This document shows, in pieces, positions 8,075-63,924 of a stretch of DNA of 64,000 bases. Under the pieces are notes generated by a model. The model worked only from the letters and a program-made list of their open reading frames with translations, made no database searches and was not told where the DNA came from. Both the position numbers and the translations under genes were made by a program. This DNA comes from Rufibacter glacialis (GTDB lineage: Bacteria > Bacteroidota > Bacteroidia > Cytophagales > Hymenobacteraceae): NCBI RefSeq assembly GCF_008271745.1, contig NZ_VKKZ01000010.1:1-64000 (forward strand), read 5' to 3'. Within the stretch, counting starts at the first letter, position 1. Each line of letters begins with the position of its first letter.

Positions 8075-8106
8075 CTGAGCCTGTTTTCTGATAATTAGCT
8101 CAAAAA
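8075..8106. repeat. Element A copy (covers the stop of the MBL-fold gene)
   Basis: Short imperfect palindrome of the dispersed family described in the findings. The core CTGTTTTCTGATAA is flanked by GAGC and GCTC arms. The stop codon of the hydrolase gene lies inside it. Confidence 0.6.
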
Positions 8107-8745
8107 CGGATTGCTGGCTTTTTCTTCCCCAATGGTGGTAGAGGGGCCATGGCCAGGGTATACGGTCACCTCTTCAGGGAGTGTGAATAATTTGGTGCGG
8201 ATGCTCTGCAGAAGGGTGTTATGGTCGCCGCCGGGTAAGTCAGTGCGGCCAATGCTGCGGTGGAACAGCACATCGCCCCCAATCAGGTTTTTGCTCTGGG
8301 GGTGGTAGAACACCACGTGGCCGGGCGCATGGCCTGGGGTGAACAATACCTCCAGCTCGGTTTCCCCGAAGGTTACGTTTTCGCCCTCTTTCAGGAATTT
8401 CTCCGGTAAAACCTCTTGGTACTGGGGAAAGCCATAGGCCGCTGAATAGGTAGGCACCGCGCGCAGCACGGCTAAATCCGCTTCGTGTATTTCCAGGGGC
8501 ACCCCATAGGTATCTGCTATGAACTTGTTGCCCAGCACATGGTCAATGTGGCAATGGGTGTTCAGAAGGCGCACTACCTTCAGGCCTTGGGCCTGGATGA
8601 ACCGCTGTAACTCCTGCTGTTCCTCTTTATCGGCGCAGCCGGGGTCAATGACCACGCATTCTTTGGTGGCGTCATACAGCACGTAGGTATTTTCTGAGAA
8701 TGGATTGAACGTGAATAATTTTACTTGCAGGCTATTGGCAGGCAT
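8095..8745 (-). CDS. MBL-fold metallo-hydrolase (glyoxalase II-like)
   Basis: A 216-residue metallo-beta-lactamase-fold hydrolase. The metal site motif THCHIDH is present (H64, H66, D68, H69), followed by the GHAPGH and GGDVLF motifs and a late YPGHGP motif, giving a full two-metal set. It resembles the YcbL/GloB-like hydrolases that cleave thioesters such as hydroxyacylglutathione, but the short length argues against a classical glyoxalase II. I chose the start at 8745 because the protein there begins with the typical short leader into the first beta strand; a longer frame upstream would run into the divergent gene. The substrate is unknown. Confidence 0.85.
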   Translation of the reverse strand: MPANSLQVKLFTFNPFSENTYVLYDATKECVVIDPGCADKEEQQELQRFIQAQGLKVVRLLNTHCHIDHVLGNKFIADTYGVPLEIHEADLAVLRAVPTYSAAYGFPQYQEVLPEKFLKEGENVTFGETELEVLFTPGHAPGHVVFYHPQSKNLIGGDVLFHRSIGRTDLPGGDHNTLLQSIRTKLFTLPEEVTVYPGHGPSTTIGEEKASNPFLS

Positions 8746-8809
8746 GGAGGATATCTTTTTTGCAGGCTCTAAGTTACATATTTCAGCGGCACAAGCCGTA
8801 CCTTGGGGC

Positions 8810-9886
8810 ATGATTTATGATTATCTGGTAGTAGGGCACGGCCTGGCCGGCGCGATTTTAACCTGTTTTCTGGAAAAAGCCGGTAAAACGGTGCTGGTGG
8901 TGGATGCCCCCAAAGAGAACTCGGCCTCCCGCGTGGCGGCCGGGCTGATCAACCCGGTGGCGGGGAAACGGTTTGCCAAAAGCTGGCAGATTGACGCCTT
9001 TCTGCCCGCCGCCGCCGCCTTTTACCAGGAGATGGAGGAACGCTACCAGACCCGCTTGTTCCACCGCAAACCCATTCTCAAACTCTTCTCCACCGCAGAG
9101 GAACAGAACAACTGGATGGGCAAAAGCACTGACCCCGCCTGGGACGGCTACATTGAAACCACGCACCTGCAACTCCCAGTCTCTGAATACGTTCACCAGG
9201 AATTAGGCGGTCTGCTCATTCAGCAGGGTGGGTACGTGGCCCTGCGGTCGTTCCTGGATCTGCGGGCTGAAGACCTCAGGCAACGGGGAGCGATCCGGTT
9301 AGAGGCCTTGGATTTATCTCTGCTGGAATTGTCTCCGGATACAGTGCGTTACAAGGAGATAACGGCCCGAAACATCGTTTTCTGCGAGGGAGCGCAAGGT
9401 GCCCAGAACCCGTTTTTCAGTTGGTTGCCTTTTTCTTTGAATAAAGGGGAAATTTTGGATATAAATATGCCTGATTTTGAGGCTTCCTATATCTATAATA
9501 AAGCCGTTTACGTTGTGCCTTTAGGACAAACCCACTACCGCGTGGGTGCCACGTACAACTGGCGGAACCTGGAGGAAAACCTAACCCAGGAGGCCAGGGA
9601 AGAACTGACGGCCAAGGCACAGGACATTCTGAAAAAACCGTTTACCGTGACAAAGCAGTATGTAGGGGTAAGGCCCGCCGTGCGAGACCGGAAACCCTTG
9701 GTGGGCGTGCACCCCCAGCACCCGCGCATAGGTATTTTCAACGGGATGGGCTCTAAAGGAGTATTGATGGCGCCCTTGCTGGCGCAGCAGTTTATCTCAA
9801 GGCTGGAGCAGGGAACGGCCCTTTGGCCAGAGGTGGATATTGTCCGGTATTTATCGTTATATTTAGCATCTACGTCAACCACATGA
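8810..9886 (+). CDS. FAD-dependent oxidoreductase (DAO family)
   Basis: A 358-residue protein of the D-amino-acid/glycine oxidase family (DAO, PF01266). It starts with a dinucleotide-binding fold with GHGLAG (G9, G11, G14), then the SRVAAGLINPVAGKRFAKSW-like segment used by this family to bind FAD. Near the C-terminus a GMGSKGV segment is the usual second FAD contact. Relatives oxidise glycine, sarcosine, D-amino acids or the MnmC substrate; which one this protein uses cannot be read from the sequence. The start at 8810 places the FAD motif at the usual distance from the N-terminus. Its last 4 nt overlap the next gene (ATGA), so the two are translationally coupled. Confidence 0.85.
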   Translation: MIYDYLVVGHGLAGAILTCFLEKAGKTVLVVDAPKENSASRVAAGLINPVAGKRFAKSWQIDAFLPAAAAFYQEMEERYQTRLFHRKPILKLFSTAEEQNNWMGKSTDPAWDGYIETTHLQLPVSEYVHQELGGLLIQQGGYVALRSFLDLRAEDLRQRGAIRLEALDLSLLELSPDTVRYKEITARNIVFCEGAQGAQNPFFSWLPFSLNKGEILDINMPDFEASYIYNKAVYVVPLGQTHYRVGATYNWRNLEENLTQEAREELTAKAQDILKKPFTVTKQYVGVRPAVRDRKPLVGVHPQHPRIGIFNGMGSKGVLMAPLLAQQFISRLEQGTALWPEVDIVRYLSLYLASTSTT

Positions 9887-13092: not shown

Positions 13093-13139
13093 TACAGGAA
13101 ACAAAGACGGCTTTTCGCCTGATTCTGTAAAAACACCTT

Positions 13140-13182
13140 AAAAGCAGAAGACCTCCCTGAACAAGGGAGGTCTTCTGCTTTT
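13140..13182 (+). terminator. Terminator after the TolB-like gene
   Basis: A perfect 18-bp stem (13140-13157 with 13165-13182) with a 7-nt loop and flanking A and T runs lies 47 nt past the stop codon. Confidence 0.9.
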
Positions 13183-13261
13183 AAGGATACAAAAAGAAAG
13201 GGTATGCACCTTTGCCGGAGAGGACAATGCGGAGAACAATGCGTGGTAGAGACAAGGCAAA

Positions 13262-13522: not shown

Positions 13523-13560
13523 TGTTTTAAGCGAATATTTGCAAAAACGCCTTAAAAGCA
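13523..13560. repeat. Element A copy
   Basis: Imperfect palindrome with TTTTAAGCG and CGCCTTAAAA arms, directly next to the purQ terminator. The gap between the TolB-like gene and purQ (about 600 bases) otherwise holds two terminators and element F, and no gene I can support. Confidence 0.5.
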
Positions 13561-13597: not shown

Positions 13598-13702
13598 ATA
13601 ATCAGCGGCAGCGGTTAGTTTCGCGCCTGCTTTTTACAAAACAGCGGAATCCTGCCTAACTATGCTCCAAATAGAAGCGTTCTCTTATGAGAAGAGCGGT
13701 AC

Positions 13703-15410: not shown

Positions 15411-15446
15411 GTTTTTGGCCTGTTTCCTGGAAATCCCAACTGAAAC
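15411..15446. repeat. Element A copy
   Basis: Imperfect palindrome with a GTTT...GGCCTGTTTCC left half and a GGAAATCCC...TGAAAC right half. It starts 8 nt after the yicC stop and fills most of the gap to the M43 protease gene. Confidence 0.55.
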
Positions 15447-17826: not shown

Positions 17827-17891
17827 TGATCGTTGGAGCGATGAGCTAATCAACTAGATAATCCCCAATTCACGTTAATACGGCATTCTGC

Positions 17892-17926
17892 TTTCAGCCC
17901 TGTTTTTGCAAAAAGCAGCCCCAAAC
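17892..17926. repeat. Element A copy
   Basis: Imperfect palindrome with a CTGTTTTTGCAAAAAGCAG core. It ends just before the stop codon of the M28 peptidase gene on the minus strand. Confidence 0.6.
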
Positions 17927-17931
17927 AGAAG

Positions 17932-19209
17932 CTACAACGCCTTCACAAACTCCTGGATTAGGGCCATCACCTCTTTGAACTTGGTGAGGGGGAGCGTCTC
18001 TGGCTTGTCTTGCGGGTGGTGGTATTCAGTGGTAGTGCCGCCCAGGGTGTAGAAGAAGAAGGAGGGAACCCCCTGTTCAGAGAAAAAATAATGGTCTGAG
18101 TTAGCCGCCTTGCCCCGGCTCTTGATCTGCGGAAGGTACCCGTGCTGCTGGTTCAACTGCTGCAAGAGGGAAAACTGCTTCGGGAAAACACTGCCGTTCA
18201 CCACCATGAGGCCTTCTTCGCCGGTGCTCACCAAGTCAAGGTTCAGAAGGAACTTGATCTTGCCCAGCGGGAAAAGCGAGTGCTCTGTGTAGTACTTTGA
18301 ACCCACCAAGCCAGCCTCTTCCGCGGCGAAGGCCATGAACGCGATGGAATAAGCCGGAGTATTCTGCGGTTGGGCGTAATAGTGGGCCAGTTCCAGCAGC
18401 ATGGCGGTTCCGCTGCCGTTGTCATGTGCCCCCGGGAAATACAGGTCTTTGCCCTGGTGGCCTAAATGGTCATAATGCGCCGTCACCACCACAAAAGAGT
18501 CTGGCTTGATCTTACCTGGCACAAACCCGATCACGTTCTGGCTGCGGTACTGCGGTTCCAGGCGGGCATCTACGGCAAAGGTCACTTTCTTCGCCTTTTT
18601 AGGCCAGGCTTTTTCCAGCACCTCCAGCACCGGGAACGGGAGTTGCTCGCCCAGTACGGTGCCTATCAGCTTAGGGCCGGGCTGCCGCACAATCACGGCG
18701 GCCACGCTTTGCAGCTGGGGTTGGAACGGGTCTGGCAAGGAAAGCAGTTGCTGGAAGTGACGCTGGTGCACCACCAGTACTTTGTTGCGCAGGTTGTTGG
18801 TGAGGAACTGCTGGGCTACATCTACATCGGCTAGGACCAGGGTATCTATGTCATACACGCGGCCTTCGCCCTTTCCCGCGCCGGTAGCGCCGTGCGCCAG
18901 GAAATCAACGCCGGGTACCAGCGCCTTGCCGTCAATGGTCAGCTGCAGGCGGTTGTCCAGGATGTTGATGGGAAGCGTGAAAGGCTGCAGATAGCCAGAT
19001 GGAAACGGCCGCAGACCGATGGCCTTGTATTGTTGCTGCAGGTAGTCGGCCGCCAGGCTGTCGCCTTTGAACGCGTAGCCGCGACCGTGCAGGGCTGGTG
19101 AGGCCAGGTGGGCAATGGTCTGCCGCACCCGCGTCATTTCCTGGGCCTTTCCCGCAAAGCAGAAGGAAAGAAGAGAAAAACTGAGCAAGAGCCAGCGCCT
19201 GCGTGCCAT
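17932..19209 (-). CDS. Secreted M28 family zinc peptidase
   Basis: A 425-residue protein with a signal peptide (about 1-22). Its N-terminal half holds the loop-rich part often found before M28 domains. The M28 catalytic residues are visible: TAHYDHLG (H245, D247), GAHDNGSG (D263), AAEEAG (E297/E298), NLDLVST and a late ANSDHYFF histidine. It is likely a periplasmic aminopeptidase with two zinc ions. I chose the start at 19209, where a clean signal peptide begins and an 11-nt gap follows vanZ; the longer frame overlaps vanZ. It is the last gene of the gcvH-vanZ-M28 run. Confidence 0.9.
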   Translation of the reverse strand: MARRRWLLLSFSLLSFCFAGKAQEMTRVRQTIAHLASPALHGRGYAFKGDSLAADYLQQQYKAIGLRPFPSGYLQPFTLPINILDNRLQLTIDGKALVPGVDFLAHGATGAGKGEGRVYDIDTLVLADVDVAQQFLTNNLRNKVLVVHQRHFQQLLSLPDPFQPQLQSVAAVIVRQPGPKLIGTVLGEQLPFPVLEVLEKAWPKKAKKVTFAVDARLEPQYRSQNVIGFVPGKIKPDSFVVVTAHYDHLGHQGKDLYFPGAHDNGSGTAMLLELAHYYAQPQNTPAYSIAFMAFAAEEAGLVGSKYYTEHSLFPLGKIKFLLNLDLVSTGEEGLMVVNGSVFPKQFSLLQQLNQQHGYLPQIKSRGKAANSDHYFFSEQGVPSFFFYTLGGTTTEYHHPQDKPETLPLTKFKEVMALIQEFVKAL

Positions 19210-20013: not shown

Positions 20014-20036
20014 AAGTGATATAATTAAGTTTGATT

Positions 20037-20068
20037 CAAAAATACGTTCTTTTTAGCACGTGCCGCAA
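20037..20068 (-). promoter_or_regulatory. Promoter of gcvH
   Basis: On the minus strand, TTGC (20065-20068), a 20-nt spacer and TATTTTTG (20037-20044) fit the Bacteroidota -33/-7 pattern. The predicted leader is about 20 nt. Confidence 0.55.
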
Positions 20069-20234
20069 GCCCGGAGAAGGTTTAAGGTTCGCTTTTAGAA
20101 GCGAAAGTGGTCAGAGCAAGGTTCTGCGGAAGCTTTTTCAGAGACGCGTAGTGGTACTACGAGGCGAAAAAAAGGCGAACGCAGGTTCTGGCTATGGCCA
20201 CTTGCCGCCCAAAGGGCGAAAGGTAACCCTTCTC

Positions 20235-23200: not shown

Positions 23201-26200
23201 ACTCGTAGTAGTTCTGGGTGAAGTCAGTACCAATCCGCACGAAGGCGTTGACTTCATTGTCTCTAGTGCCGCTGGGTGACTGGGCATGCACGTACATTTT
23301 CAGGCGCTTGTAGATAAGCATGTCCTGCGACACGTTCTTGTACACGGCCTTGCTGAAAGAGTCTCTCAGGTTCTCCACGTTCAGTTGCAGCGACTGCTCA
23401 TTCTGGCGGCGGTTGTTGGCCGAGGAATAATCGCGCTGGCGGGATACGCCCGGTGGCACCACATACGGAATAGTGCCCGGGTCTACCTCGCCGTTTTCCT
23501 CAATGCTGACCGTAGACACCTCAAACGCGGAGGCATCTGTGTCACAGTCACCCACGCAAGGGGCGCCGTTGGAGAGAATGGTGTTGTAGGTACGCCACTG
23601 GTTAGAGACAAACTGCATCTGCACAAAACGCAGCACCACCGGCTCAGCAAACTTAGTGGTGTACATCCGCATGAACCTGATGGACTTGAAGCCTTGCATG
23701 TTGTTCACGTTGCCGGTGGGTTTTCTCACCGGAATACGGAACTGGTACCAGCGCACCCGGTTGTTGCCGGTGTCTACTGAGTCAACGCGGTCTACAATGT
23801 AGTTGCTGCCCACGGCCAACCGATTAGGGTTCAGGTCAATGTTGTACTCATAGTATTGCTCCACGTCACTGATGACGTTGTCTTTGTTCAGGTCTTCTTT
23901 GTCTGGGAACGCATTGGACGACAGGTTGCTGTTCACCGGGGAGTTGCCTTCCATGCCATTGAAGTTCTTGTAACGGCCCAGCACCCCGGTTCTGGAAGCG
24001 TCATAAGAAGGATCTAAGTGGTGGCGGAAGTTATCAGCGGAGGGATCTGCCAAGGTGCTGTAAATACCCTGAAAGAAAGCCCGCTCATCGTTGTCGTTCA
24101 AGCCATCCAGACCAATGTCCTGGTACTGGCGCGATCCGGCTTCAGCGTCAAAAGCATCGGTGAGGAACTGGGTGCGGGTCACGCGGCCCCAAGGGGTGGT
24201 TTCTGTGTTTTGCGTGTTCCCGTCGGTGGGGAGGCCGTTCTCAAAGGCGTAGCGTTGGTCTTTGAGCAGGTCTTCAGAGATGTTACCTAAGTTGAAGACC
24301 AGCTTCCCGTTCTCATCCAGGCTGTTCTGGGCATCGGGCTTGCCCGTGATAATGCTCCGGCCGCGGTCTCCTTTGATGAAGGGGTCCATCATCCAGAACT
24401 CCAGGTACTCAATGTTGGCGTTGTCAAAGTTGTTGTCAAACGAGATCTCACGGCTGATACCGGCCCAGTTGTTTCTGGGGTCATTTTCCAGAATCTGGCC
24501 ATCAGCGCTTACGCTGGGATTGTAGTTGTACTGCCCGCGTTCTCTGGGGTAATAAGCCAGGTCAAAGGTGTACTCAAAGGTATTGTTGGTCTCCGGGTCA
24601 CGGTTAGGGAAGATTTCCCGCCGCTGGATACCCCGTACGTAGTGGTTCTCCAACTCTTCGCGGCTAATGTTGTTAGGGCGCAGGTTGTTGGAGGAGTAAT
24701 AGATCTGGTCAATGGTGTACCAGGCCAGCTTGGCCCGGTTGTAGGCATACGCCAACCCGGTGGCCCCGTTTGCCAGGGGCGCCGGGGTAGCGGCCAGACG
24801 CCAGGCGTTGGTGTTGAAGCCTCCTAAGGAGTAAGGCGTTTTGGCGTTCTCAAAGTCATCAATGTAAGAGACGCCGTCTTCGCCCTCAAATTTGGTCTTC
24901 TGCGGAACCAGCTGGGCTACCTCGGCCCCCAGGGTAATGGAAGAGGGTTCTTTGGTTTCCAGGAACGGCAGCTTGTCGGTGAGGAGGGTGAGCAGGCGGG
25001 AATCACGGCGGTAGTTCACATCAAACCCATACACCGTGTTGTTGCTGGGCTCATCTCCTATGTTCACCCGTTGGATAAAAGGCCTTTCCCCCTGGTGCAA
25101 CACCGTAGCGCCTAAGATCAGGTCATTGTCTACCCGGTAGTCAAACCGGGCGCCCATGAGGGTACGGGGCTGCACACTCAGGATGTCTGCTTTCTCATAC
25201 GTCACGCGCAGGTTGCTGGCGCTGTTGAGGTAACTAGGGTTCAGGATCTTTACCCGGCCCAGATCATAGAACACCTGGTAGTCCTGGCCCTCCACCAAAC
25301 GCGTTCCGCCGGAGTACACAGCCACTGAGCCTTCGGCGATTCGGATGCCGGGCAGGGTGATCTCATCTGTGCTGGAGGCTTGGTAGCGACCCTGAATGAA
25401 GAACTTGTTTTTGTGCGCGAACTGCTGGGCATCGGTCTGGATGGAGTCATAGAGCTCCTGGAAGACGTACTTGTTGATGTACTGGTCTTCCTGCCCCGGT
25501 ATGAAGCGGGAGCGGAGGTAAGACCCAAACGGCTCTACCTGCGGGAAGAAGATACGCCCGCTTTCCGGGTCAATGGTGATGCCCGACAAGAAGTCAAAGT
25601 TGCCGTCACGCGGTGGGTCATTGTTCGTGTTCACGTTGTCCAGGTTGAAGACCTGGATGAGAGGAATCCCTTTTAACCGAGACTCATCCTGGAGGCTGGT
25701 CAGGTCGCCTCCGGTTGCATCATCTTTGTAGACCACGTTGAGTTGGAAGTTCTGGCGCTCAATCTGGTTCGCGTTGAGCGCGTAGACGTTCTTCATCATG
25801 AGGTCCCAGGTAGGGGTTCTGAGGCCAGGGTTGGTGGCGCGCAGCAACTTCAGGAAGATCACCTGGTCTTCGGGTACGTTCTGGTAGTCTTCCTGCAGTT
25901 CGCCCACTTTGTAGGTACGGCCGTTCAGGGTGTATTCAAACGCCACGCCCAGCACTTGTTCCGGTAACAGGGCCGCGTTCAAAGAGATATAGCCCAGCTG
26001 CGGGTTGAATTTGTACTCGTTGGGGTCCAGGCGGCGGGCACGCACATGCTCAAAATCCACGGTTTTCTGTAGGCCCAAGCCTTCCAGGAAGTTGTCTACC
26101 TGGGTGTTATTCCGGTTGGTGAGGCTTCCGTACAGGTTGTTCTGGTTGTTGCCCGCGCCTGCACCGGCCGGTTGGTTATTGCTGAAACGGGACCGGAAGG

Positions 26201-27995: not shown

Positions 27996-28040
27996 GCAAC
28001 CAGCGGTGTAGGAGGTGAAATCAGAATTAAGGTAATAAAA

Positions 28041-28089
28041 ACATTCTGTTTTTAGCCTATTTTATAGAAACAAGCTAAAAACAGAATGT
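28041..28089 (-). terminator. Terminator after maeB (element A type)
   Basis: A perfect 16-bp stem (28041-28056 with 28074-28089) with a 17-nt loop. The inner part (TTTTTAGCCTATTTTATAGAAA) resembles element A. It lies 64 nt after the maeB stop and before the ruvA start, so it separates the two genes. Confidence 0.8.
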
Positions 28090-28152
28090 CATATTTAAGA
28101 TAGTGAATCGCCTATATTAGAGGAAGATACAGGCAGTACGTACTAGTACTAT

Positions 28153-30548: not shown

Positions 30549-30584
30549 GTTTAGGCCCTGTTTCCGCCAAAACGCCCGAAAAAC
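30549..30584. repeat. Element A copy
   Basis: Imperfect palindrome (GTTTAGGCCCTGTTTCC left half, GCCCGAAAAAC right half) in the gap between maeB and mltD, directly beside the mltD terminator. Confidence 0.5.
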
Positions 30585-30637: not shown

Positions 30638-32209
30638 TCAACCCACAATGAGCTTCATGCCAGGTTTTAATTCGTCGCCTTTCAGCTTGTTTGCTTTTCT
30701 CAGTTGCTCCACGCTCACGTTGTTGTAGCGTTTAGAGATGTTCCAGAGGGTGTCACCGGGCTGCACATGGTGTACCGTCTGCAGCTTGGGAGCCTCGGGT
30801 TTCTTGGCGGGTGCTTTTTTAGACGTCACGGCCACGCTGGCCGCATTCTCTTTGGGCATGCCTTCCGCGTCAGGGCCGGCGTGTTTGCCAGCCGGGGTAC
30901 CCAGGTCTTCCGCTGAGGCCAGCAAAGTGGTCTCTGTTTTGGCGGCTTCTTTGGAATTGGCGCCGGAAACGCTGCTTTCGGGCTTGAACAGAACCAGCTT
31001 CTGGTTGGCAACCAGCATATTGCCCTTGATCTTGTTCCAGGCTTTGAGTTGTTCCACCGTCACGTTCTGCTCCTTGGCAATCTTAGAAAGGTTGTCGTTG
31101 GGGCGTACGTGGTAGAAAGATTTGGTGCTGCTGTCTGGTAAAGCCGGTTCAGCCTTGGCCAGGATGGTGGCGGGCACTTCCTGTAAGGCAGGTAGTTTGG
31201 TTCTGGCCGGGGCTCTGTAAGGCGCCACGTAGCGGGCAGAATCCAGAATGGCCATGCGGTTATCGGCCAGGAAAGGGCGCACATCAGCCGGAATGCGCAG
31301 CGGGAAATTTGAGACGTTCTCTGGAATGTGCTTCAGTTTCAGCGCCGGATTCAGGTTCACGATGTGATCCTCGGGCAGGTTGAGTTGCTTGGCCAGCAGT
31401 TTCAGGTCCAGCGGCTGACTGATGAGGAGGGTGTCTACGGCAATGGGCATCTGTACCTTGGCCGGGTACAGGTTATGGTCCTCGGCGTGGTTCAGGGCGT
31501 AGACCAGGGCCGTGAAAGAAGGTACGTAGGCCCGCGTTTCCTTAGGCAGATACGGATAGATTTCCCAGAACGTCTTCTTGCCGCCCGACCGGGTAATGGC
31601 TTTTCTTACGTTGCCCGGACCGCAGTTATAGGCGGCCAGCGCCATCTCCCAGCTGCCGAACATGCGGTACAGTTGTTTCAGGAACTTGCAGGCGGCCTCG
31701 GTTGATTTCTCGGGGTCCATGCGCTCGTCCAGGTAATGGTTCTGCACCAACCTGAAATCATTGGCCGTAGGGGTCATGAACTGCCACAGCCCCACGGCCT
31801 TGGCCGAGGAAACGGCCTTGGGCAGTAACGCAGATTCCACCACCGCCAGATACTTCAGCTCATCTGGCATGCCGTGTTTGGCCAGATATTGCTCAAACAT
31901 AGGGAAGTACAGCGGCTTGCGCTCCAGCACGCGTCGGGTGTATTTCCGGTTCCGGATGGTGAAATAGTCAATCAACCCTCTTACCTGCTTGTTGAACTCC
32001 AGCGGAATCTCCTGTTCCAGACAGCTGAGGCGGTCCTGGATGAGTTCATCGGTTTCCACCGGAATGAACTCCACAGAGTCAACGAGCACCTTGGTAGTGT
32101 CTTTTACTTGCACGACTGGAAGATCCAGAACCGTAGTTTGCCGGGCCTGCACCGCAGTGCCCAAGCCTAATGTAAGTAGAAGGCCAGTAAGAAGGGTAGT
32201 TTTATGCAT
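30638..32209 (-). CDS. mltD: Lytic transglycosylase with LysM domains (MltD-like)
   Basis: A 523-residue exported enzyme. A signal peptide (about 1-22) is followed by an SLT domain with the catalytic glutamate in LAVVESALLP (E125), then AVGLWQFMTPTA and later AYNCGPGNV and YVPSFTALVYA. Two LysM domains bind peptidoglycan: one at about 366-410 and one at the C-terminus (about 477-523). It cleaves the glycan strand with 1,6-anhydro end formation in the periplasm. Its ATG shares one base with the gatA stop codon (TAATG), so the two are coupled; tatA lies just upstream. Confidence 0.93.
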   Translation of the reverse strand: MHKTTLLTGLLLTLGLGTAVQARQTTVLDLPVVQVKDTTKVLVDSVEFIPVETDELIQDRLSCLEQEIPLEFNKQVRGLIDYFTIRNRKYTRRVLERKPLYFPMFEQYLAKHGMPDELKYLAVVESALLPKAVSSAKAVGLWQFMTPTANDFRLVQNHYLDERMDPEKSTEAACKFLKQLYRMFGSWEMALAAYNCGPGNVRKAITRSGGKKTFWEIYPYLPKETRAYVPSFTALVYALNHAEDHNLYPAKVQMPIAVDTLLISQPLDLKLLAKQLNLPEDHIVNLNPALKLKHIPENVSNFPLRIPADVRPFLADNRMAILDSARYVAPYRAPARTKLPALQEVPATILAKAEPALPDSSTKSFYHVRPNDNLSKIAKEQNVTVEQLKAWNKIKGNMLVANQKLVLFKPESSVSGANSKEAAKTETTLLASAEDLGTPAGKHAGPDAEGMPKENAASVAVTSKKAPAKKPEAPKLQTVHHVQPGDTLWNISKRYNNVSVEQLRKANKLKGDELKPGMKLIVG

Positions 32210-38757: not shown

Positions 38758-38782
38758 CCGCCGTTTACAGACAAGCTATTTC

Positions 38783-38826
38783 AGAGCCGTTTTTAGGGAA
38801 GACCCTGAAAACGGCTCTTTTTTTTC
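38783..38826 (+). terminator. Terminator after the M28 lipoprotein gene (element A type)
   Basis: An 11-bp stem (38783-38793 with 38808-38818), with an inner 4-bp stem, followed by a run of at least eight T. The inner sequence resembles element A. Confidence 0.92.
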
Positions 38827-39999: not shown

Positions 40000-40028
40000 A
40001 GGCAGTGATCGTTAGAACTGCTTTGCGG

Positions 40029-40056
40029 GGCTGTTTTTAGGAAATCAGCTTAAAAG
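40029..40056. repeat. Element A copy
   Basis: GGGCTGTTTTTAGGAAATCAG core in the 50-nt gap between the convergent arsM and LD-carboxypeptidase genes; it runs into the stop codon of the latter. Confidence 0.5.
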
Positions 40057-40958
40057 TAGCTGTTGGTGTAGGCCAAGCTAACACCGTCCACTCCCACGCG
40101 CAGCGTGGCTTCGCGGCCCACGGCCATGGCGAAGTTGCGGTCTACGTGCCCTACCGGAAAGTCAAAGCAGATGGGGTAGCCGTAGCCGCCGCAGTGTTCC
40201 AGGATGATCTGCGGCACATCCCTCCCGAACGGCACTTGCGTATCATTCATATCAGAGAACTGGCCCACTACCAGGCCCGCCAACTGTTGCAGTTTTCCCA
40301 ACCGGCGCAGGTGCACCAGCACGCGGTCAACATTGTAGTAATACTCGCCCACGTCTTCCAGGAACAGAATCTTGCCCGAATAATCCACGTCAGAAGCGGT
40401 ACCGGAAATGGTGTCTAAGAGAATGAGGTTGCCGCCAACCAATTGCCCAGTGCCCTCGCCCATTATGTTGTGGGGATTGGCCGGAACAGCGTAAGACAGC
40501 GGTTCCTGGAACAAGAGCCGGCGCAGAGTCTCGTCGGCCTCCGCGGTTTCGGGCTTGCCCATGAGCAGGGGCATGGTGCCGTGCACGCTGGGCAGGCCCA
40601 GCGTGTGCAGGTGGCAGAGCAGGGCCGTCACGTCACTGAACCCGATGATCCACTTGGGGTTTTGCTGCAAACCGCTGAAGTCGAGCTGATCTAGAATGCG
40701 GGTAGTGCCGTAGCCGCCCCTCGCAGAGAAAATGGCTTTGATCTGAGGGTTGTCCAGCATCTGCTGGAAATCGGTTTTCCGCAGTTCATCAGGCCCTCCG
40801 AAATAGCCGTCTTCGGCCCCTATGCTTTGGCCCAGCACCACGCTCAGTCCCCAGGCTTCTAATAAGTTGATGCCCTCCTGAATGTCTTCTAAACTGACTT
40901 TTCGGGCCAGGCAAACAATGCCAACGGTGTCTCCTTGCTGTAGGGCGGGTACGGTCAC
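40050..40958 (-). CDS. ldcA: LD-carboxypeptidase (S66 family)
   Basis: A 302-residue serine peptidase of the S66 family. The nucleophile is in WIIGFSDVTALL (S108). The other residues of the triad are in ILFLEDVGEYYY (glutamate) and FPVGHVDRN (histidine). The FSARGGYGTTRILDQL segment at about 77-92 is typical. It removes the terminal D-alanine from murein tetrapeptides in recycling, in the cytoplasm; MccF-type microcin immunity proteins belong to the same family. The start codon is GTG (the codon at 40956-40958), with MTVPALQQGD as a normal family opening. Confidence 0.92.
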   Translation of the reverse strand: MTVPALQQGDTVGIVCLARKVSLEDIQEGINLLEAWGLSVVLGQSIGAEDGYFGGPDELRKTDFQQMLDNPQIKAIFSARGGYGTTRILDQLDFSGLQQNPKWIIGFSDVTALLCHLHTLGLPSVHGTMPLLMGKPETAEADETLRRLLFQEPLSYAVPANPHNIMGEGTGQLVGGNLILLDTISGTASDVDYSGKILFLEDVGEYYYNVDRVLVHLRRLGKLQQLAGLVVGQFSDMNDTQVPFGRDVPQIILEHCGGYGYPICFDFPVGHVDRNFAMAVGREATLRVGVDGVSLAYTNSYF

Positions 40959-41017
40959 AGGGAATGGGGTTTAAAATACAGGCTTCCAAAGTAGGCAATT
41001 TTCCTGACTGCTGCCTA

Positions 41018-41051
41018 TTTCAAGGTTGTTTTTGAGAAATCAGCCTTGAAA
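41018..41051. repeat. Element A copy
   Basis: Well-formed palindrome: TTTCAAGG (41018-41025) pairs with CCTTGAAA (41044-41051), and the inner TTG/CAG adds a further three pairs with one wobble. It lies between the LD-carboxypeptidase and thioesterase genes, which are divergent, so it is not a terminator for either. Confidence 0.65.
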
Positions 41052-41129
41052 CGCTTTCGGTTTCTAGGTATACCTTATCTTCATTTCCTGATTCCTAATT
41101 CCCCATTCCTAATTCTTAATTGATAAAAA

Positions 41130-42682: not shown

Positions 42683-42725
42683 AAAACAGAAAGGGCCCCG
42701 CATTGAGCGGGGCCCTTTCTGTTTT
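42683..42725 (+). terminator. Terminator after rlmN
   Basis: A perfect 18-bp stem (42683-42700 with 42708-42725), with a 7-nt loop and A/T ends; strong enough to act in both directions and so also end mscL on the minus strand. Confidence 0.92.
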
Positions 42726-42756
42726 AGGGTTGTTTGTAGAAAGATGGCCTTTAAAC
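42721..42756. repeat. Element A copy
   Basis: GTTTTAGGG left arm and GCCTTTAAAC right arm around TGTTTGTAGAAA. It overlaps the end of the rlmN terminator and reaches to within 6 nt of the mscL stop codon. Confidence 0.6.
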
Positions 42757-45367: not shown

Positions 45368-45440
45368 AGAGAAAAATGGTCTGACCGGCAATATACCGCT
45401 TCTACTATATGGTTACCAATCTTCCGCTGCTGCTTTGTGG

Positions 45441-45475
45441 GTTTTCAGCCGGTTTTCAGAAAAAGCCTAGAAAAC
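45441..45475. repeat. Element A copy
   Basis: GTTTTCAGCCGG left half and GCCTAGAAAAC right half around TTTTCAGAAAA, close to a symmetric palindrome. Confidence 0.6.
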
Positions 45476-45684: not shown

Positions 45685-45722
45685 TGTTTTGAGGTTGTTT
45701 TGCTATAAATGGCCTTAAAACA
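45685..45722. repeat. Element A copy
   Basis: TGTTTTGAGG left arm and CCTTAAAACA right arm, 10 bp with one wobble, directly before the terminator of the BNR gene. Confidence 0.65.
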
Positions 45723-45755
45723 ATAATCCCGCCGCTGGAGTAGCGGCGGGATTAT
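45723..45755 (-). terminator. Terminator after the BNR-repeat gene
   Basis: A perfect 14-bp stem (45723-45736 with 45742-45755) with a 5-nt loop, 46 nt after the stop codon on the minus strand. Confidence 0.85.
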
Positions 45756-49070: not shown

Positions 49071-49106
49071 GTTTTTGAGGCGTTTTCTGAAAATCAGGAA
49101 TGAAAC
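49071..49106. repeat. Element A copy
   Basis: GTTTTTGAGGCG left half and CAGGAATGAAAC right half around TTTTCTGAAAA. Confidence 0.55.
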
Positions 49107-49173: not shown

Positions 49174-49209
49174 GTTTTCTGGCTCTTTTTTGAAAATCGG
49201 CCTAAGAAC
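49174..49209. repeat. Element A copy
   Basis: GTTTTCTGGCTC left half and GGCCTAAGAAC right half around TTTTTTGAAAA, 67 nt after the previous copy in the same gap. Confidence 0.5.
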
Positions 49210-51496: not shown

Positions 51497-51531
51497 GTTT
51501 AGGAGCTTTTTTTCAGAAAATGGCCGGAAAA
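51497..51531. repeat. Element A copy
   Basis: GTTTAGGAGC left half and GGCCGGAAAAT right half around TTTTTTTCAGAAAA, 3 nt after the M48 stop codon. A further weak copy seems to follow at about 51543-51577. Confidence 0.5.
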
Positions 51532-51584
51532 TAAGTGATTGATTTTTGCTTGTTTCCCTGGGCCGGCCTAGAAAATTGAAACGG

Positions 51585-51635: not shown

Positions 51636-52880
51636 TTACTTCTTCTCCATATCGCGCAGGAGCCGGACGGTCATAAAACCCAGGCCAATCGCCAGGAGGG
51701 CAATGGCGGCCCAGACCAGGATTTTGGAGCTTTGGGTCTGTTTTTGGGTTTTCGGGGCTGAAACAGACTGCAGGTGCTGCACCTGAAGCACGGGAGCATG
51801 GGCGGGGATGCTGTCCTGGAAGAACTGCAGGTCATATTCCGGGGCCTTAGCTTTCTCGTTCCCGAAGCGCAATGTGTACGCCTGGCCCCGTTCTAGGGCG
51901 GCTACCAGGTACCGGTTGAGTTGACGCACCCGCACCGAGTCAATGGACAGCGGCGGATTATCCCCGTTCTCAATCTGGATGACCAGTTCCTCTACCCGCT
52001 GGCGCGGCAGGTCCAGCACGGCGGGCGCGTTAGAAGAGAGCAGCAGCGGCACCGAGGTTTCTTCCAGGCGGGCCTGCCGCCTTTTCCTTCGGCGGCGTTC
52101 AGGCCTTTTTTGTTCGCCTACTATTACCTGACCCGGACGGTGGTACAAACCCGGAGCCGAGATAAACAGCGCTACCTGCTCCGGGTACACCGGCTGCCCA
52201 AATTTCAGGCGCAGGTAGGTGGTGTGGTTCTCTGCGCTGTCACGGCGGGTGATTGCCTTAATGGGAATGGTGGCGTATTTGCCGGCCTCAGAATACGTGT
52301 CATAGTACCCGGCCTGCAAGATGTTGAGCGGGGCGCTGAGCGAATCCTGGAGTTGGAGCCGGAAGTAGCGGTAGTTGCTCAACGGGAAGTCCAGCAGCTT
52401 GACCTCGGCGGTGCTGCGGGTATTTTTGATGGCGTACAGCACGTCCTGTTCCTTGAGCACATACCAATCCTGTTGATCATCGCTGCCGCTCAGGGAGACC
52501 GGTTTGCGAACCTCGGCGTTGCCGATGCGCAGGCTGATGTTGTTGATGCTCCGTTTCTGGGGATTGTGCACCAAAAGCTCAGACACGCCCCCGGGCCGGC
52601 GGGTGTAGCGCAGGATTTGGTAGGGCTTGAACAAAGTGCGGTACTGTACGGGAACCTCGGCGCGCAACACGTAGGGCACGGGTTGCCCGTTAGGCCCCAT
52701 TACCCTGATATCCTCCAAACCAGGCTGTAAACGGCCGGTCACCTGCGGCGGAAGCAGGATGCGGTGAAAGCCCTGCTGCGTGACCGGAGCCAGCTGCGCC
52801 TGCCACGCGAACTCCTGCCCGGCCGCGGAAAGCCAGCTTGCGGCAGAGACCGCCAGGAAGAACAGCAGCTTAGGTTTCAT
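51636..52880 (-). CDS. DUF3999 family protein
   Basis: A 414-residue protein matching DUF3999 (PF13163): a signal peptide (about 1-21), then several beta domains of unknown function (GRLQPGLEDIRVMGPNGQPVPYVLRAEVP at about 49-77) and one C-terminal membrane helix (VWAAIALLAIGLGFMTV). Nothing is known of its activity. Its start overlaps the end of the DUF2339 gene by 11 nt, and DUF3999 is commonly found beside DUF2339, so the two products probably work together at the inner membrane. Confidence 0.82.
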   Translation of the reverse strand: MKPKLLFFLAVSAASWLSAAGQEFAWQAQLAPVTQQGFHRILLPPQVTGRLQPGLEDIRVMGPNGQPVPYVLRAEVPVQYRTLFKPYQILRYTRRPGGVSELLVHNPQKRSINNISLRIGNAEVRKPVSLSGSDDQQDWYVLKEQDVLYAIKNTRSTAEVKLLDFPLSNYRYFRLQLQDSLSAPLNILQAGYYDTYSEAGKYATIPIKAITRRDSAENHTTYLRLKFGQPVYPEQVALFISAPGLYHRPGQVIVGEQKRPERRRRKRRQARLEETSVPLLLSSNAPAVLDLPRQRVEELVIQIENGDNPPLSIDSVRVRQLNRYLVAALERGQAYTLRFGNEKAKAPEYDLQFFQDSIPAHAPVLQVQHLQSVSAPKTQKQTQSSKILVWAAIALLAIGLGFMTVRLLRDMEKK

Positions 52881-55435: not shown

Positions 55436-55472
55436 GGTTTTTGTCTGTCTTCAAGAAATCAGGGCTGAAACC
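55436..55472. repeat. Element A copy
   Basis: GGTTTTTGTCTG left half and CAGGGCTGAAACC right half around TCTTCAAGAAAT. Confidence 0.5.
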
Positions 55473-57212: not shown

Positions 57213-57248
57213 GTTTGGGGCCTGTTTCGCAGAAAACAGGCCCCAAAC
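57213..57248. repeat. Element A copy, best-formed
   Basis: A perfect 15-bp stem (57213-57227 with 57234-57248) and a 6-nt loop. It also serves as a likely terminator-like hairpin between the minus-strand unknown gene at 57287 and tadA. A short C/G palindrome (57257-57273) follows. Confidence 0.8.
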
Positions 57249-58759: not shown

Positions 58760-58795
58760 GTTTCAGGCCTGTTCTTCTGAAAACTAAGCGAAAAC
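58760..58795. repeat. Element A copy
   Basis: GTTTCAGGCCTG left half and AAGCGAAAAC right half around TTCTTCTGAAAA, inside the nuoA-nuoB gap; it ends 6 nt before the nuoB ATG. Confidence 0.55.
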
Positions 58796-59938: not shown

Positions 59939-61153
59939 ATGGAGTTAGCCAAACAGAATACCCAGATAGTTACCCCAGATTCCTACATGCAGGAGCTCAC
60001 CACCCTGAATTTAGGACCTACGCACCCGGCTACGCACGGTATCTTCCAGAACATCCTGCAAATGGATGGCGAGAAGATTGTGTCCGGCGTGCCTACGATT
60101 GGGTACATTCACCGCGCCTTCGAGAAAATCGCGGAGCGCCGCAACTTTTACCAGATCACCCCGCTCACCGACCGCATGAACTACTGCTCCTCGCCCATCA
60201 ACAACATGGGCTGGTGGATGACGGTGGAGAAGCTGTTGGGTGTGACCGTTCCCAAGCGTGCCGAGTACATCCGGGTGATTGTAATGGAACTGGCCCGTAT
60301 TGCCGATCACCTGATCTGTAACTCTATTCTGGGCGTGGATACTGGTGCCTTCACCGGTTTCTTGTACGTTTTCCAGGAAAGAGAGAAAATCTACGAAATC
60401 TATGAGGAGATCTGCGGTGCCCGCTTAACTACCAACATGGGGAGAGTAGGCGGCATGGAGCGTGATTTGTCGCCGGTTGCCATTGAGAAGATCAGGGATT
60501 TCCTGAAGAACTTCCCCAAGGTGATGACTGAGTTTGAGACCATGTTCAACCGTAACCGGATCTTCATTGACCGGGTGGAGAACGTGGGACCCATCACTGC
60601 GGAACGCGCCTTGAACTACGGCTTTACCGGCCCTAACCTGAGAGCCGCCGGCGTAGATTATGACGTGCGCGTCATGAACCCGTACTCTTCTTACCAAGAC
60701 TTCGACTTCGAGATTCCGGTAGGTACCAAGGGCGACACCTACGACCGCTTCATGGTGAGAAACGAGGAAATCTGGCAGAGCTTGCGCATCATTCAGCAAG
60801 CCATGGACAACCTTCCTGAAGGTCCGTTTCACGCTGATGCCCCAGAATTCTACCTGCCGCCAAAGCAAGAGGTGTACCGCAACATGGAAGCCTTGATCTA
60901 TCACTTCAAGATTGTGATGGGCGAGATTGACGCACCGGTTGGTGAAGTATACCATGCCGTGGAAGGCGGTAACGGAGAGCTTGGCTTCTACCTGGTGTCT
61001 GACGGAGGCCGCACGCCGTACCGTCTGCACTTCAGAAGACCCTGCTTCATCTATTACCAGGCATACCCAGAAATGGTGGTAGGCACCCAGTTATCAGATG
61101 CGATCGTGATCCTGTCCAGCATGAACGTGATTGCCGGTGAGCTAGACGCCTAG
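59939..61153 (+). CDS. nuoD: NADH-quinone oxidoreductase subunit D
   Basis: A 404-residue 49-kDa-family subunit with the LNLGPTHPATHG opening (about residues 21-32), the RIADHLICNSILGVDTGA segment and a final DAIVILSSMNVIAGELDA tail. It lines the quinone pocket with NuoB. The ATG at 59939 gives the normal start; an upstream ATG at 59888 lies in the hairpin region. The usual next gene, nuoE, is delayed by an inserted mntA-hepT pair and an element B arm. Confidence 0.97.
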   Translation: MELAKQNTQIVTPDSYMQELTTLNLGPTHPATHGIFQNILQMDGEKIVSGVPTIGYIHRAFEKIAERRNFYQITPLTDRMNYCSSPINNMGWWMTVEKLLGVTVPKRAEYIRVIVMELARIADHLICNSILGVDTGAFTGFLYVFQEREKIYEIYEEICGARLTTNMGRVGGMERDLSPVAIEKIRDFLKNFPKVMTEFETMFNRNRIFIDRVENVGPITAERALNYGFTGPNLRAAGVDYDVRVMNPYSSYQDFDFEIPVGTKGDTYDRFMVRNEEIWQSLRIIQQAMDNLPEGPFHADAPEFYLPPKQEVYRNMEALIYHFKIVMGEIDAPVGEVYHAVEGGNGELGFYLVSDGGRTPYRLHFRRPCFIYYQAYPEMVVGTQLSDAIVILSSMNVIAGELDA

Positions 61154-61240
61154 CGGCGTAGTTGATAGTTGTTCGTTTTTAGTTGTTATTGAATAGAAGG
61201 AATGACTTAAGCTTAGAGCACCTTCACTTTCTCCCCACTT

Positions 61241-61270
61241 TGTCATCCTGAAAGGAACTTGTGGGCGAAC
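61241..61270. repeat. Element B, left arm
   Basis: TGTCATCCTGAAAGG..CTTGTGGGCGAAC, a single arm of element B, 87 nt after nuoD and directly before the mntA-hepT pair. Confidence 0.7.
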
Positions 61271-61338
61271 TAGAACAGCAAGTGAGGAAAACGACAAGCC
61301 TAACAACTAAAAACTAGTTGCTAAACACTAAAAAGGCC

Positions 61339-61981: not shown

Positions 61982-62017
61982 TGTTCCCTTAGAAGAGCAT
62001 TAGGAGCAACAAAATAC

Positions 62018-62557
62018 ATGGAGCAAACAGCAAGTGTAAATCAAGTACAGTTTTCGGAAGGGGCCATGGCCGAAATCCGGCGCTACTTATCCCATTACCC
62101 CGCTGACCGTCAGAAGTCAGCGATTTTGCCTATCCTGCACATCGCGCAAGCGGAGTTCGGTGGTTGGGTAAGCCCCGAGGCAATGGACCTAGTAGCGGAA
62201 ATCCTGAACATCCAGCCCATTGAAGTGTACGAGGTAGCCACCTTCTACACCATGTTCAACCTGAAGCCGGTAGGCAAGCACGTGTTGGAAGTTTGCCGCA
62301 CGGGTCCTTGCATGCTGCGCGGCTCTGACCAACTCATTGAGCACCTGGAGAACCGTTTGGGCTGCAAAGTAGGCGAGACCTCCGCTGACGGAAACTTCAC
62401 CTTAAAAACGGTGGAATGCCTGGCCTCCTGCGGCACCGGACCGATGCTGCAAGTGCGTGAACAATTCTACGAAGACCTGGACCCCGCCAGCGCCGACCAG
62501 CTGCTGGAAGACCTGAAAGCCTTAACCGTAAGGAAACCATGGGAAGAAAATTATTAA
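62018..62557 (+). CDS. nuoE: NADH-quinone oxidoreductase subunit E
   Basis: A 179-residue 24-kDa-family subunit. It binds a [2Fe-2S] cluster by C93 and C98 (VCRTGPC) and C134 and C138 (CLASCGTGP). It helps NuoF to oxidise NADH. Its last 19 nt overlap the start of nuoF, so the two are coupled. Confidence 0.96.
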   Translation: MEQTASVNQVQFSEGAMAEIRRYLSHYPADRQKSAILPILHIAQAEFGGWVSPEAMDLVAEILNIQPIEVYEVATFYTMFNLKPVGKHVLEVCRTGPCMLRGSDQLIEHLENRLGCKVGETSADGNFTLKTVECLASCGTGPMLQVREQFYEDLDPASADQLLEDLKALTVRKPWEENY

Positions 62558-63882
62558 CTGAACATATCAACGTTGAAGGCATCCATACCTTTGACGTCTA
62601 TCGCAAGCACGGCGGGTACGCCTCCGTAGAGAAAGCTTTGAAAACCATGACCCCCGAGGAAGTGGTGGAAGAAGTGAAAGCATCAGGTTTAAGAGGCCGG
62701 GGTGGTGCCGGATTCCCTACCGGGATGAAGTGGAGCTTTTTGGCCAAACCAGAAGGAAAACCCCGTTACCTGGTTTGCAACGCCGATGAGTCAGAGCCCG
62801 GCACCTTCAAGGACCGGTACCTGATGGAGAAACTGCCGCACCTCTTGATTGAAGGGATGATCACGTCTTCCTTCGCGCTGGGTGCCCGCACTTCTTACAT
62901 TTATATAAGAGGTGAGTTGTTGTACGTACTGCGCATCCTGGAGAAAGCCATTGCCGAGGCCTATGCGAACGGGTTCCTGGGCGAGAACATCTTAGGAAGC
63001 GGTTACTCTCTTGATTTGCACGTGCACCCAGGCGGAGGCGCGTACATCTGCGGCGAGGAAACCGCGTTGCTGGAATCGCTGGAAGGCAAGCGCGGAAACC
63101 CGCGTAACAAGCCTCCGTTCCCGGCGGTTTGGGGTCTTTATGGTTGCCCAACCGTGGTAAACAACGTGGAGTCTATTGCCACCGTGCCATGGATTATCAC
63201 CAACACGGCCGCTGAATACGCTAAAATAGGCGTAGGACGCAGCGCGGGTACCAAGCTGATCTCTGCGGGTGGTAACATCAACAAGCCAGGCGTGTACGAG
63301 ATTGATTTGGGTATCACCGTAGAGGAATTCATCTACTCAGATGAGTACTGCGGTGGTATCTGGAAAGGCCGCGACATGAAAGCAGTGATTGCCGGAGGTT
63401 CCTCTGTTCCCATTCTGCCGAAAGAGCTAATCCTGAAAACCGCAGCCGGTGAGGATAGATTGATGACCTACGAGTCGCTTTCTGACGGAGGCTTTGCTAC
63501 AGGTACCATGTTGGGTTCCGGCGGCTTCTTCGTGATGGATGACCAGACCTGCATCGTGCGCCATACCTGGACCCTGGCCCGTTTCTACCACCACGAGTCG
63601 TGCGGCCAGTGCAGCCCATGCCGTGAAGGAACCGGTTGGATGGAAAAAGTATTGCACCGCATTGAGCACGGCCACGGCCACATGCATGACATCGACTTGC
63701 TAGTGAGCGTTGCCAAGCAGATAGAAGGAAATACAATCTGTCCGTTGGGTGATGCGGCTGCCTGGCCAGTGGCAGCGGCTGTTCGTCACTTCCGTGAGGA
63801 GTTTGAGTGGCACGTGAAACACCCGCAGGCAGCTACGGCTCCGGGCGCAGTGTTCAACAAAGCTGAATCTGTATTAGCGTAA
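62539..63882 (+). CDS. nuoF: NADH-quinone oxidoreductase subunit F
   Basis: A 447-residue subunit with the FMN/NADH-binding part (SGLRGRGGAGFPTGMKW, about residues 50-66, and GEETALLESLEGKRG) and a [4Fe-4S] cluster (C355, C358 and C361 in SCGQCSPCREG and a fourth cysteine near residue 401 in ICPLGDA). It is the NADH-oxidising head of complex I. It overlaps nuoE by 19 nt. The next nuo gene is beyond the window; element A and an element B arm follow at once. Confidence 0.96.
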   Translation: MGRKLLTEHINVEGIHTFDVYRKHGGYASVEKALKTMTPEEVVEEVKASGLRGRGGAGFPTGMKWSFLAKPEGKPRYLVCNADESEPGTFKDRYLMEKLPHLLIEGMITSSFALGARTSYIYIRGELLYVLRILEKAIAEAYANGFLGENILGSGYSLDLHVHPGGGAYICGEETALLESLEGKRGNPRNKPPFPAVWGLYGCPTVVNNVESIATVPWIITNTAAEYAKIGVGRSAGTKLISAGGNINKPGVYEIDLGITVEEFIYSDEYCGGIWKGRDMKAVIAGGSSVPILPKELILKTAAGEDRLMTYESLSDGGFATGTMLGSGGFFVMDDQTCIVRHTWTLARFYHHESCGQCSPCREGTGWMEKVLHRIEHGHGHMHDIDLLVSVAKQIEGNTICPLGDAAAWPVAAAVRHFREEFEWHVKHPQAATAPGAVFNKAESVLA

Positions 63883-63888
63883 ATAGAA

Positions 63889-63924
63889 GTTTCTAGCCTG
63901 TTTTAGAGAAATCAGGCTAGAAAC
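63889..63924. repeat. Element A copy after nuoF
   Basis: A perfect 12-bp stem (63889-63900 with 63913-63924) with a 12-nt loop, 7 nt after the nuoF stop codon. It lacks a long U-tract, so it may or may not stop transcription before nuoG. Confidence 0.75.

What the first reader, a model, noticed from the sequence alone, without database searches (positions are those of the whole stretch)
8075..63924. A family of about twenty short palindromes (element A) in the gaps between genes
The same kind of 35-50 bp imperfect palindrome recurs throughout. Its pattern on the plus strand is roughly GTTTT..GGCTGTTTT, a few bases, GAAAA..GCC..AAAAC. Copies: 8075, 13523, 15411, 17892, 28041, 30549, 38783, 40029, 41018, 42721, 45441, 45685, 49071, 49174, 51497, 51585, 55436, 57213, 58760 and 63889 (weaker at 13111 and 51543). 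Nearly all are within a few nt of a stop or start codon, five double as terminators, and some touch the stop codon of a gene. One (41018) lies between divergent genes, so termination cannot explain all. Such density (about one per 3 kb) is unusual. It could be a REP-like element used for message stability, or one spread by a transposase elsewhere.
Basis: seen in the sequence. Interest (0 to 1): 0.75.

Follow-up and report, generated by a model that had tools for sequence, protein, structure and literature searches.

The report
Rufibacter-wide palindromic DNA boundary sites
Bacteria of the genus Rufibacter carry hundreds to thousands of copies of one symmetric 36-base DNA signal, mostly in the gaps between genes; it is kept in place between species and looks like a docking site for an unknown protein that marks where one transcription unit ends and the next begins.

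Summary
All 16 Rufibacter genomes held carry 186-1561 exact pattern matches. The 184 sampled genomes of the family's other five genera, and 295 other genomes of a class sample, are at control level.

The REP/hairpin reading fails for most copies. The arms do not covary in the own genome; the motif is nearly strand-symmetric even between co-directional genes; a single-contig Rufibacter genome without any RAYT match has 607 pattern copies. Mapped copies stay in place between sister species (93 of 98, 48 of 51) and are conserved at the motif letters (r = 0.94 over 80 sites in one pair, 0.66 over 42 in the other), while the species consensus shifts in concert.

This is the signature of a double-stranded protein-binding site. 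Sites often directly follow stop codons or terminator stems. I infer a transcription-unit boundary element; the protein is unidentified and no function was tested.

The parts
6070..6105 (.). match (24 bits) inside a called gene
6709..6744 (.). match (23 bits) inside a called gene
7482..7517 (.). weaker match (19 bits) inside a called gene
8072..8107 (.). dyad element (33 bits), gap
8854..8889 (.). strong match (32 bits) just inside the start of a gene as I called it; the start codon is uncertain
13110..13145 (.). dyad element (28.5 bits), gap; its end overlaps an intrinsic terminator stem (13136-13186)
13524..13559 (.). dyad element (26.5 bits), gap
13618..13653 (.). weaker dyad element (18 bits), gap
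15411..15446 (.). dyad element in a 56-bp gap; present in 14 of 15 species measured
17891..17926 (.). dyad element, convergent gap; the orthologous gap carries one in all 15 species measured
19136..19171 (.). weak match (16 bits) at the edge of a gap; in the seven relatives aligned, shared by G006 only
24471..24506 (.). weaker match (19 bits) inside a called gene
28048..28083 (.). near-perfect palindromic copy between the malic enzyme and ruvA genes; the gap is 139-165 bp in Rufibacter, 1-16 bp in g2, G002 and the named Pontibacter loci, 221 bp in G003
30549..30584 (.). dyad element directly after an intrinsic terminator; 54 bp from the gene end in 12 of 16 species, 51-65 bp in the other four
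30935..30970 (.). weaker match (17 bits) inside a called gene
38778..38813 (.). weak match (18 bits) overlapping an intrinsic terminator stem-loop with T-run; orthologous copies score 31-37 bits in six of the seven relatives aligned
40022..40057 (.). dyad element, convergent gap
41017..41052 (.). dyad element in a divergent gap
42721..42756 (.). dyad element, convergent gap; in 15 of 16 species
45440..45475 (.). dyad element
45686..45721 (.). dyad element directly after an intrinsic terminator stem (45723-45755, minus strand)
49071..49106 (.). dyad element, divergent gap
49174..49209 (.). dyad element, same divergent gap
51497..51532 (.). dyad element 3 bp after a stop codon
51588..51623 (.). 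near-perfect palindromic copy
51729..51764 (.). weaker match (19 bits) inside a called gene
55436..55471 (.). dyad element
57213..57248 (.). perfect-palindrome copy (15-nt arms)
58760..58795 (.). dyad element
60357..60392 (.). weak match (16.5 bits) inside a called gene
63889..63924 (.). dyad element; near-perfect palindrome after a stop codon

Best explanation
A genus-specific double-stranded DNA site, not an RNA hairpin. It is a 36-40 bp dyad made of four copies of a 7-mer: YTGTTTT-N4-YTGTTTT-N4-AAAACAR-N4-AAAACAR. That is two direct repeats one helical turn (11 bp) apart, facing two inverted ones. The sequence shows the anatomy, copy number, conservation and location. Inferred: one unidentified sequence-specific protein, binding as a dimer or tetramer, occupies it; its specificity drifts and its many sites follow, giving species-specific consensus sequences; and its role is to mark or insulate the edge of a transcription unit, since sites often sit directly after stop codons or terminator stems and away from start codons. 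By what physical means (blocking read-through RNA polymerase, or holding supercoils apart between neighbouring units) is not determined. As for origin, at least some copies seem to have come in as ~50-bp palindromes and were then kept by selection.
For: Copy excess and 4-tract motif. Genus restriction. Arms statistically independent. Nearly strand-symmetric profile in 292 tandem-gap sites. Same gaps filled in the 16 species, often at the same bp offset; 93/98, 91/96, 48/51 and 47/49 of the mapped sites shared by sister species. Per-position conservation of orthologous copies follows motif information: r = 0.90 for 30 pairs; r = 0.94 for 80 G042/G054 sites, TTT letters 0.89-0.99 against flank 0.76; r = 0.66 for 42 G022/G017 sites. 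Concerted species consensus: G051 paralog distance 5.7 against ortholog distance 11.8 (6 sites). Gaps >=100 bp with a site: convergent 73/81, tandem 214/298, divergent 51/93. Tandem gaps under 30 bp: 1 of 48. Site edge 0-9 nt after a terminator stem in 30 of 107 gene ends that have both; 0-9 nt after the stop in 72 of 317 without a terminator (no placement control was run).
Against: No binding protein was found: HU/IHF families show no Rufibacter-specific expansion in the 8 Rufibacter and 8 other genomes tested. Some copies are near-perfect palindromes (11 of 203), two pairs show a weak pairing excess (z 2.3-2.4), and in G022/G017 double changes keep pairs in 11 of 13 cases. 50 of 203 own-genome sites fall in my gene calls. 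G012 has a site in only 1 of 5 convergent gaps. One site lies 13 bp before a start codon, where a boundary role is hard to see. Rufibacter has as many intrinsic terminators as its relatives, so there is no direct sign that the site takes over termination. Gene calls are my own, and the 16-species counts share orthologs and are not independent.
Confidence: 0.55

Rival explanations
1. REP-like mobile palindrome: a hairpin spread by a transposase and tolerated in gaps.
For: Thousands of mostly intergenic palindromic copies; clean presence/absence differences of about 50 bp (gap 4: 58-59 bp without a site, 108-109 bp with one; two loci in G022/G017); near-identical copies in some species; concerted evolution.
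Against: Place conserved between species; copies constrained at motif letters rather than decaying evenly; arms do not covary in the own genome; no conserved GTAG/CGTC tag; G017 has no Y1_Tnp match but 607 pattern copies, and genera without the element have Y1_Tnp genes.
Confidence: 0.1
2. Domesticated mobile element: palindromes spread by insertion in the Rufibacter ancestor and were then recruited as protein sites. This concerns origin and is compatible with the best explanation.
For: Presence/absence differences at gap 4 and in G022/G017; no element in the sampled sister genera; gap 6 is 1-16 bp in g2, G002 and the Pontibacter loci but 139-165 bp in Rufibacter.
Against: Gap 6 is 221 bp in G003 (g4). 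Gaps 2 and 7 carry sites in Rufibacter without being longer than in Pontibacter, so some sites arose without net insertion; at gap 10 G000 lacks the site by substitution with no length change. In one G022/G017 case the empty state keeps a remnant like the left arm, so it may be a deletion.
Confidence: 0.35
3. Terminator or 3'-end RNA hairpin: the element acts in the transcript to end it or stabilise it.
For: 3'-end location; where a terminator stem and a site occur together, 66 of 107 fall in the two peaks at or within the stem end; near-perfect stems at some sites, with flanks that pair.
Against: Outer tracts are T on the 5' side and A on the 3' side, opposite to a terminator; arms unpaired in most copies; profile nearly the same on both sides along transcription; present in 51 of 93 divergent gaps; intrinsic terminators not reduced in Rufibacter.
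Confidence: 0.15
4. Operator of a global transcription factor that regulates genes in the ordinary way.
For: Dyad with 11-bp repeats; where a promoter-like motif is seen it lies downstream of the site centre in 20 of 21 cases (partly by construction, as the scan covers the 150 bp before the start codon).
Against: 73 of 81 convergent gaps >=100 bp, which normally hold no promoters, carry a site; roughly one site per 1.4 called genes is far beyond a regulon. The promoter scan is weak: 11 tandem hits against 9 in shuffles at gaps with a site.
Confidence: 0.15

Closest known systems
REP elements / BIMEs with RAYT
   Same: 20-40 bp palindromic, high-copy, dispersed outside genes (abstract passages of PMC3733652)
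   Different: No GTAG/CGTC tag, arms not complementary in most own-genome copies, not tied to RAYT, orthologous place conserved between species, nearly symmetric double-stranded motif with a shifting species consensus
Sites of chromosome-organising DNA-binding proteins (MatS, parS, Noc sites, KOPS; recalled)
   Same: Short site read by a dedicated protein and spread over the chromosome
   Different: As recalled, those are fewer or not tied to transcription-unit edges; here about 2,900 copies that follow gene ends
Bidirectional intrinsic terminators
   Same: Symmetric, between convergent genes; some copies lie in or beside a terminator stem
   Different: Reversed T/A tracts, no pairing constraint in most copies, also in divergent gaps
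Pho-box-type tandem sites of winged-helix regulators (recalled)
   Same: 7-bp direct repeats with an 11-bp period
   Different: Here two such pairs face each other, in thousands of copies and not promoter-linked

Membership tests
REP (GTAG/CGTC-tagged) | conserved GTAG or CGTC tag at one unpaired end | tested here: not met
   PWM and flanks show GTTTT ends and no conserved tetranucleotide tag; definition from passages of PMC3733652
REP (GTAG/CGTC-tagged) | hairpin-forming arms | tested here: not met
   no arm covariation beyond shuffles in 203 own-genome sites; 11 of 203 near-perfect. Inconclusive for G022/G017: 11 of 13 double changes keep the pair
REP (GTAG/CGTC-tagged) | associated RAYT (Y1 transposase) | tested here: not met
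   G017: 0 Y1_Tnp matches at E 0.001, 607 exact pattern copies
MITE / insertion element | insertion polymorphism with target duplication | tested here: inconclusive
   empty/filled states seen; no consistent target duplication by eye
Intrinsic terminator | stem followed by a T-run, pairing conserved | tested here: not met
   near strand symmetry and lack of covariation; a minority of copies coincide with terminator stems
Protein-bound dyad (operator or nucleoid site) | dyad letters conserved independently in both arms with fixed spacing | tested here: met
Protein-bound dyad (operator or nucleoid site) | a protein that binds it | not testable with these tools
   none identified; HU/IHF not expanded
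Known Rfam RNA | match at the gathering score | tested here: not met
   0 matches in the window
Integron attC | R/L boxes, folded single strand, gene cassettes with integrase (recalled) | not tested
   considered because of the position after stop codons; conserved places beside housekeeping genes speak against it

The most novel reading that the evidence does not exclude
Rufibacter has a genome-wide boundary system: one dedicated DNA-binding protein sits at most edges between transcription units (about 2,900 places in this genome) and insulates neighbours from read-through or supercoiling, with protein and sites co-evolving so fast that several species have their own dialect. This would be a bacterial counterpart of insulators, invented within a single genus.
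Probability: 0.4. Interest if true: 0.92.

Novelty: new variant of a known kind. Interest (0 to 1): 0.75.

Why it matters
A signal at roughly seven in ten sizeable intergenic gaps (338 of 472 gaps >=100 bp in the stretches read from 16 species), not seen in the sampled sister genera, means that a basic layer of genome organisation arose and became fixed within one genus. Sixteen sequenced species with different consensus versions give a natural experiment on how a protein and thousands of its sites change together. It also warns that dispersed intergenic palindromes need not be RNA hairpins or mobile repeats: covariation between the arms is a simple test.

Tried and rejected
RNA hairpin or REP: rejected for most copies by covariation, symmetry and RAYT tests. 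Rfam: 0 matches in the window. A similar dyad in sister genera: none among the 14 top spaced 4-mer dyads printed for g2, g4, Pontibacter and Hymenobacter samples (these samples are mostly one orthologous region); the TTAA signal in g2 is at least partly local tandem repeats. HU/IHF as the binder: one strong full-length HU match in each of the 16 genomes tested (8 Rufibacter, 8 others), with no Rufibacter-specific expansion. Replacement of intrinsic terminators: not seen. A promoter link: too weak in tandem gaps (11 against 9 shuffled at gaps with a site). Plasmids: short chance-like matches only, for one 66-bp query. Viral contigs: one match in the collection for a stricter pattern, a single strong site in a 3,987-base locus. 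Literature: the searches showed nothing on such an element in Rufibacter or its relatives. I saw listings with starts of abstracts only (15 of 30 papers, 10 of 16; two searches found none), except passages of PMC3733652. Most subscription journals are not held.

Rows dropped before counts: the 261 nhmmer hits of the last round were reduced to 152 places (best strand of overlapping hits); sites whose flanks did not map were left out (16 of 114, 15 of 111, 39 of 90 and 49 of 98), and the flank and pair counts use only gap-free shared sites (80 and 42); only 30 gap-free site pairs were used; gaps under 100 bp are left out of the 16-species fractions; a site in a convergent gap can count for two gene ends.
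Full report
CHECK OF THE OBSERVATION. Searching from the 20 main copies with an iterated profile gave 152 places in 371 kb of the own genome, aligned almost without gaps. A symmetric 44-bp matrix found 249 places at >=10 bits (10 in order-1 Markov sequence) and 203 at >=16 bits (0 in the shuffle, 1 in that). Scaled to 5.32 Mb that is about 2,900 copies. A test without any matrix, the bare pattern TTT-N9-TTT-N4-AAA-N9-AAA, has 653 matches in the whole own genome against 18 for the reversed pattern.

ANATOMY. The conserved letters are TTT at -17..-15 and -5..-3 and their mirror AAA. The information peaks are 1.2-1.5 bits at -16, -15, -5, -4 and -3; between them lies a weaker G-G-S-C-T-G stretch; the centre is four nearly free bases. 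Each half is a direct repeat: YYGTTTT at -20..-14 and CTGTTTT at -9..-3, 11 bp apart. Flanks are not conserved.

NOT A HAIRPIN. If the palindrome worked by folding, letters facing each other should change together. In 152 copies the observed pairing equals the product of column frequencies at nearly every pair; two outer-middle pairs have z of 2.3-2.4, an excess that vanishes when the 60 best-scoring copies are left out. Shuffling right arms among 203 sites gives z = 1.2 (mid arm), 0.9 (tracts) and 1.5 (flanks); by context class no z exceeds 2.0. Only 11 of 203 have >=14 of 16 pairs: 8 in tandem gaps, 2 in convergent gaps, 1 genic, none divergent. In 292 sites between co-directional genes, pooled over species and so not independent, the two arms have nearly the same profile along transcription; the largest chi-square per position is 14 on 3 degrees of freedom. 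Against this: between G022 and G017, 11 of 13 double changes at paired positions keep a pair (10 of 22 between G042 and G054), though many are transitions within the degenerate consensus. Some copies, such as 28048-28083, stay near-perfect palindromes in most species with changed letters. So a minority probably also serve as stems.

DISTRIBUTION. With GTTT and AAAC ends the pattern has 186-1561 matches in the 16 genomes of the genus (control 0-2). In 184 sampled genomes of the five other genera of the family it has 0-3, the control level. A class-wide draw of 296 genomes from 166 genera, own genome and genus included, shows no other carrier: at most 3 matches, control up to 6.

CONSERVATION OF PLACE. 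I fetched a syntenic 40-kb region from 15 relatives. Mostly the same gaps carry a site in nearly every species where the gap could be read, and the shortest gaps carry none. Offsets are often kept to the base: 38 bp before the gene in gap 10 for 9 of 15 species (36-46 bp in the rest), 54 bp in gap 7 for 12 of 16 species (51-65 bp in the rest). Between sister species at 89% and 86% identity, 93 of 98, 91 of 96, 48 of 51 and 47 of 49 mapped sites are shared. Within orthologous copies, identity follows motif information: r = 0.90 over 30 pairs; r = 0.94 over 80 G042/G054 sites, T-tract letters 0.89-0.99 against flank 0.76; r = 0.66 over 42 G022/G017 sites, measured with the own-genome matrix. Copies are therefore under purifying selection for the motif.

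SPECIES DIALECTS. The consensus differs by species, also at orthologous places: GTTTTCGGGCTCATTT in G051, GTTTAGGGGCTGTTTTT in G048, GTTTTTGGCCTGTTTTC in G022 and G017. Copies within G051 differ by 5.7 letters on average, from their orthologs elsewhere by 11.8. G048, G012, G057, G060, G022 and G017 lean the same way. In G000, G006 and seven close species paralogs differ more than orthologs (5-9 sites per species). Drift of a binding protein followed by its sites, or homogenisation by copying, could both do this.

WHERE THE SITES SIT. Over 16 species, gaps >=100 bp carry a site in 73 of 81 convergent, 214 of 298 tandem and 51 of 93 divergent cases (my own gene calls, species not independent; G012 has 1 of 5 convergent). 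In the own genome 55 of 76 tandem sites are nearer the upstream stop. Where a terminator stem is found, the site begins 0-9 nt after it in 30 of 107 gene ends. In a further 36 of 107 it begins 31-50 nt before the stem's end, which I read, without checking each, as the site being part of the stem. Without a terminator, 72 of 317 begin 0-9 nt after the stop (no placement control run). In divergent gaps 24 of 25 sites keep at least 30 bp from the nearest start codon. Rufibacter has no fewer intrinsic terminators than its relatives (few convergent gaps in some outgroups).

ORIGIN. Gap 4 shows empty (58-59 bp, 9 of 15 species) and filled (108-109 bp, 3 of 15) states at the same spot next to a stop codon. 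G022/G017 show three sites that align to a gap: one lies in a longer missing stretch, the other two differ by about a site length, as an insertion or a deletion. Gap 6 is 1-16 bp in g2, G002 and the Pontibacter loci, 221 bp in G003 and 139-165 bp in Rufibacter. Gaps 2 and 7 did not lengthen. G017, a single-contig genome, has no Y1_Tnp match but 607 pattern copies. So insertion probably contributes, RAYT is not needed, and some sites probably arose by substitution.

MECHANISM. Shown: real, dense, genus-specific in the samples searched, position-conserved, selected letter by letter, near double-stranded symmetry, tied to ends of transcription units. Inferred: bound by one protein, with a boundary role. 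The binder was not found; HU/IHF is not expanded.

VERDICT. The REP/hairpin reading is not supported for most copies. The most likely identity is a protein-bound boundary dyad, of a kind for which I found no described counterpart in the searches named under Tried and rejected.

Noticed in passing
window 27996-28152: The malic enzyme and ruvA genes are 1-16 bp apart in g2, G002 and the Pontibacter loci (221 bp in G003) but about 160 bp apart in the 15 Rufibacter measured, with a dyad element in the gap.
   Followed up: partly
window 20014-20234 and orthologous gap 4 in L026, L030, L038, L020: Empty/filled polymorphism of a ~50-bp palindromic element beside a stop codon, apparently gained more than once at the same spot.
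   Followed up: partly
L186:1275-1310 (IMGVR_UViG_2839759663_000002): One strong element directly after a terminator stem in a viral contig, perhaps a Rufibacter prophage.
   Followed up: no
L042, L043, L055-L057 (G051): In G051 the inner repeat of the consensus changed from CTGTTTT to CTCATTT; at least one place (gap 0) lacks the site.
   Followed up: partly
window 9823-13092: A 1089-aa ORF without any Pfam match at E 0.001.
   Followed up: no
L006-L008 (own contig C1, 140-200 kb): Element density is 5-7 per 20 kb here, against up to 15 per 20 kb elsewhere; the cause was not studied.
   Followed up: no
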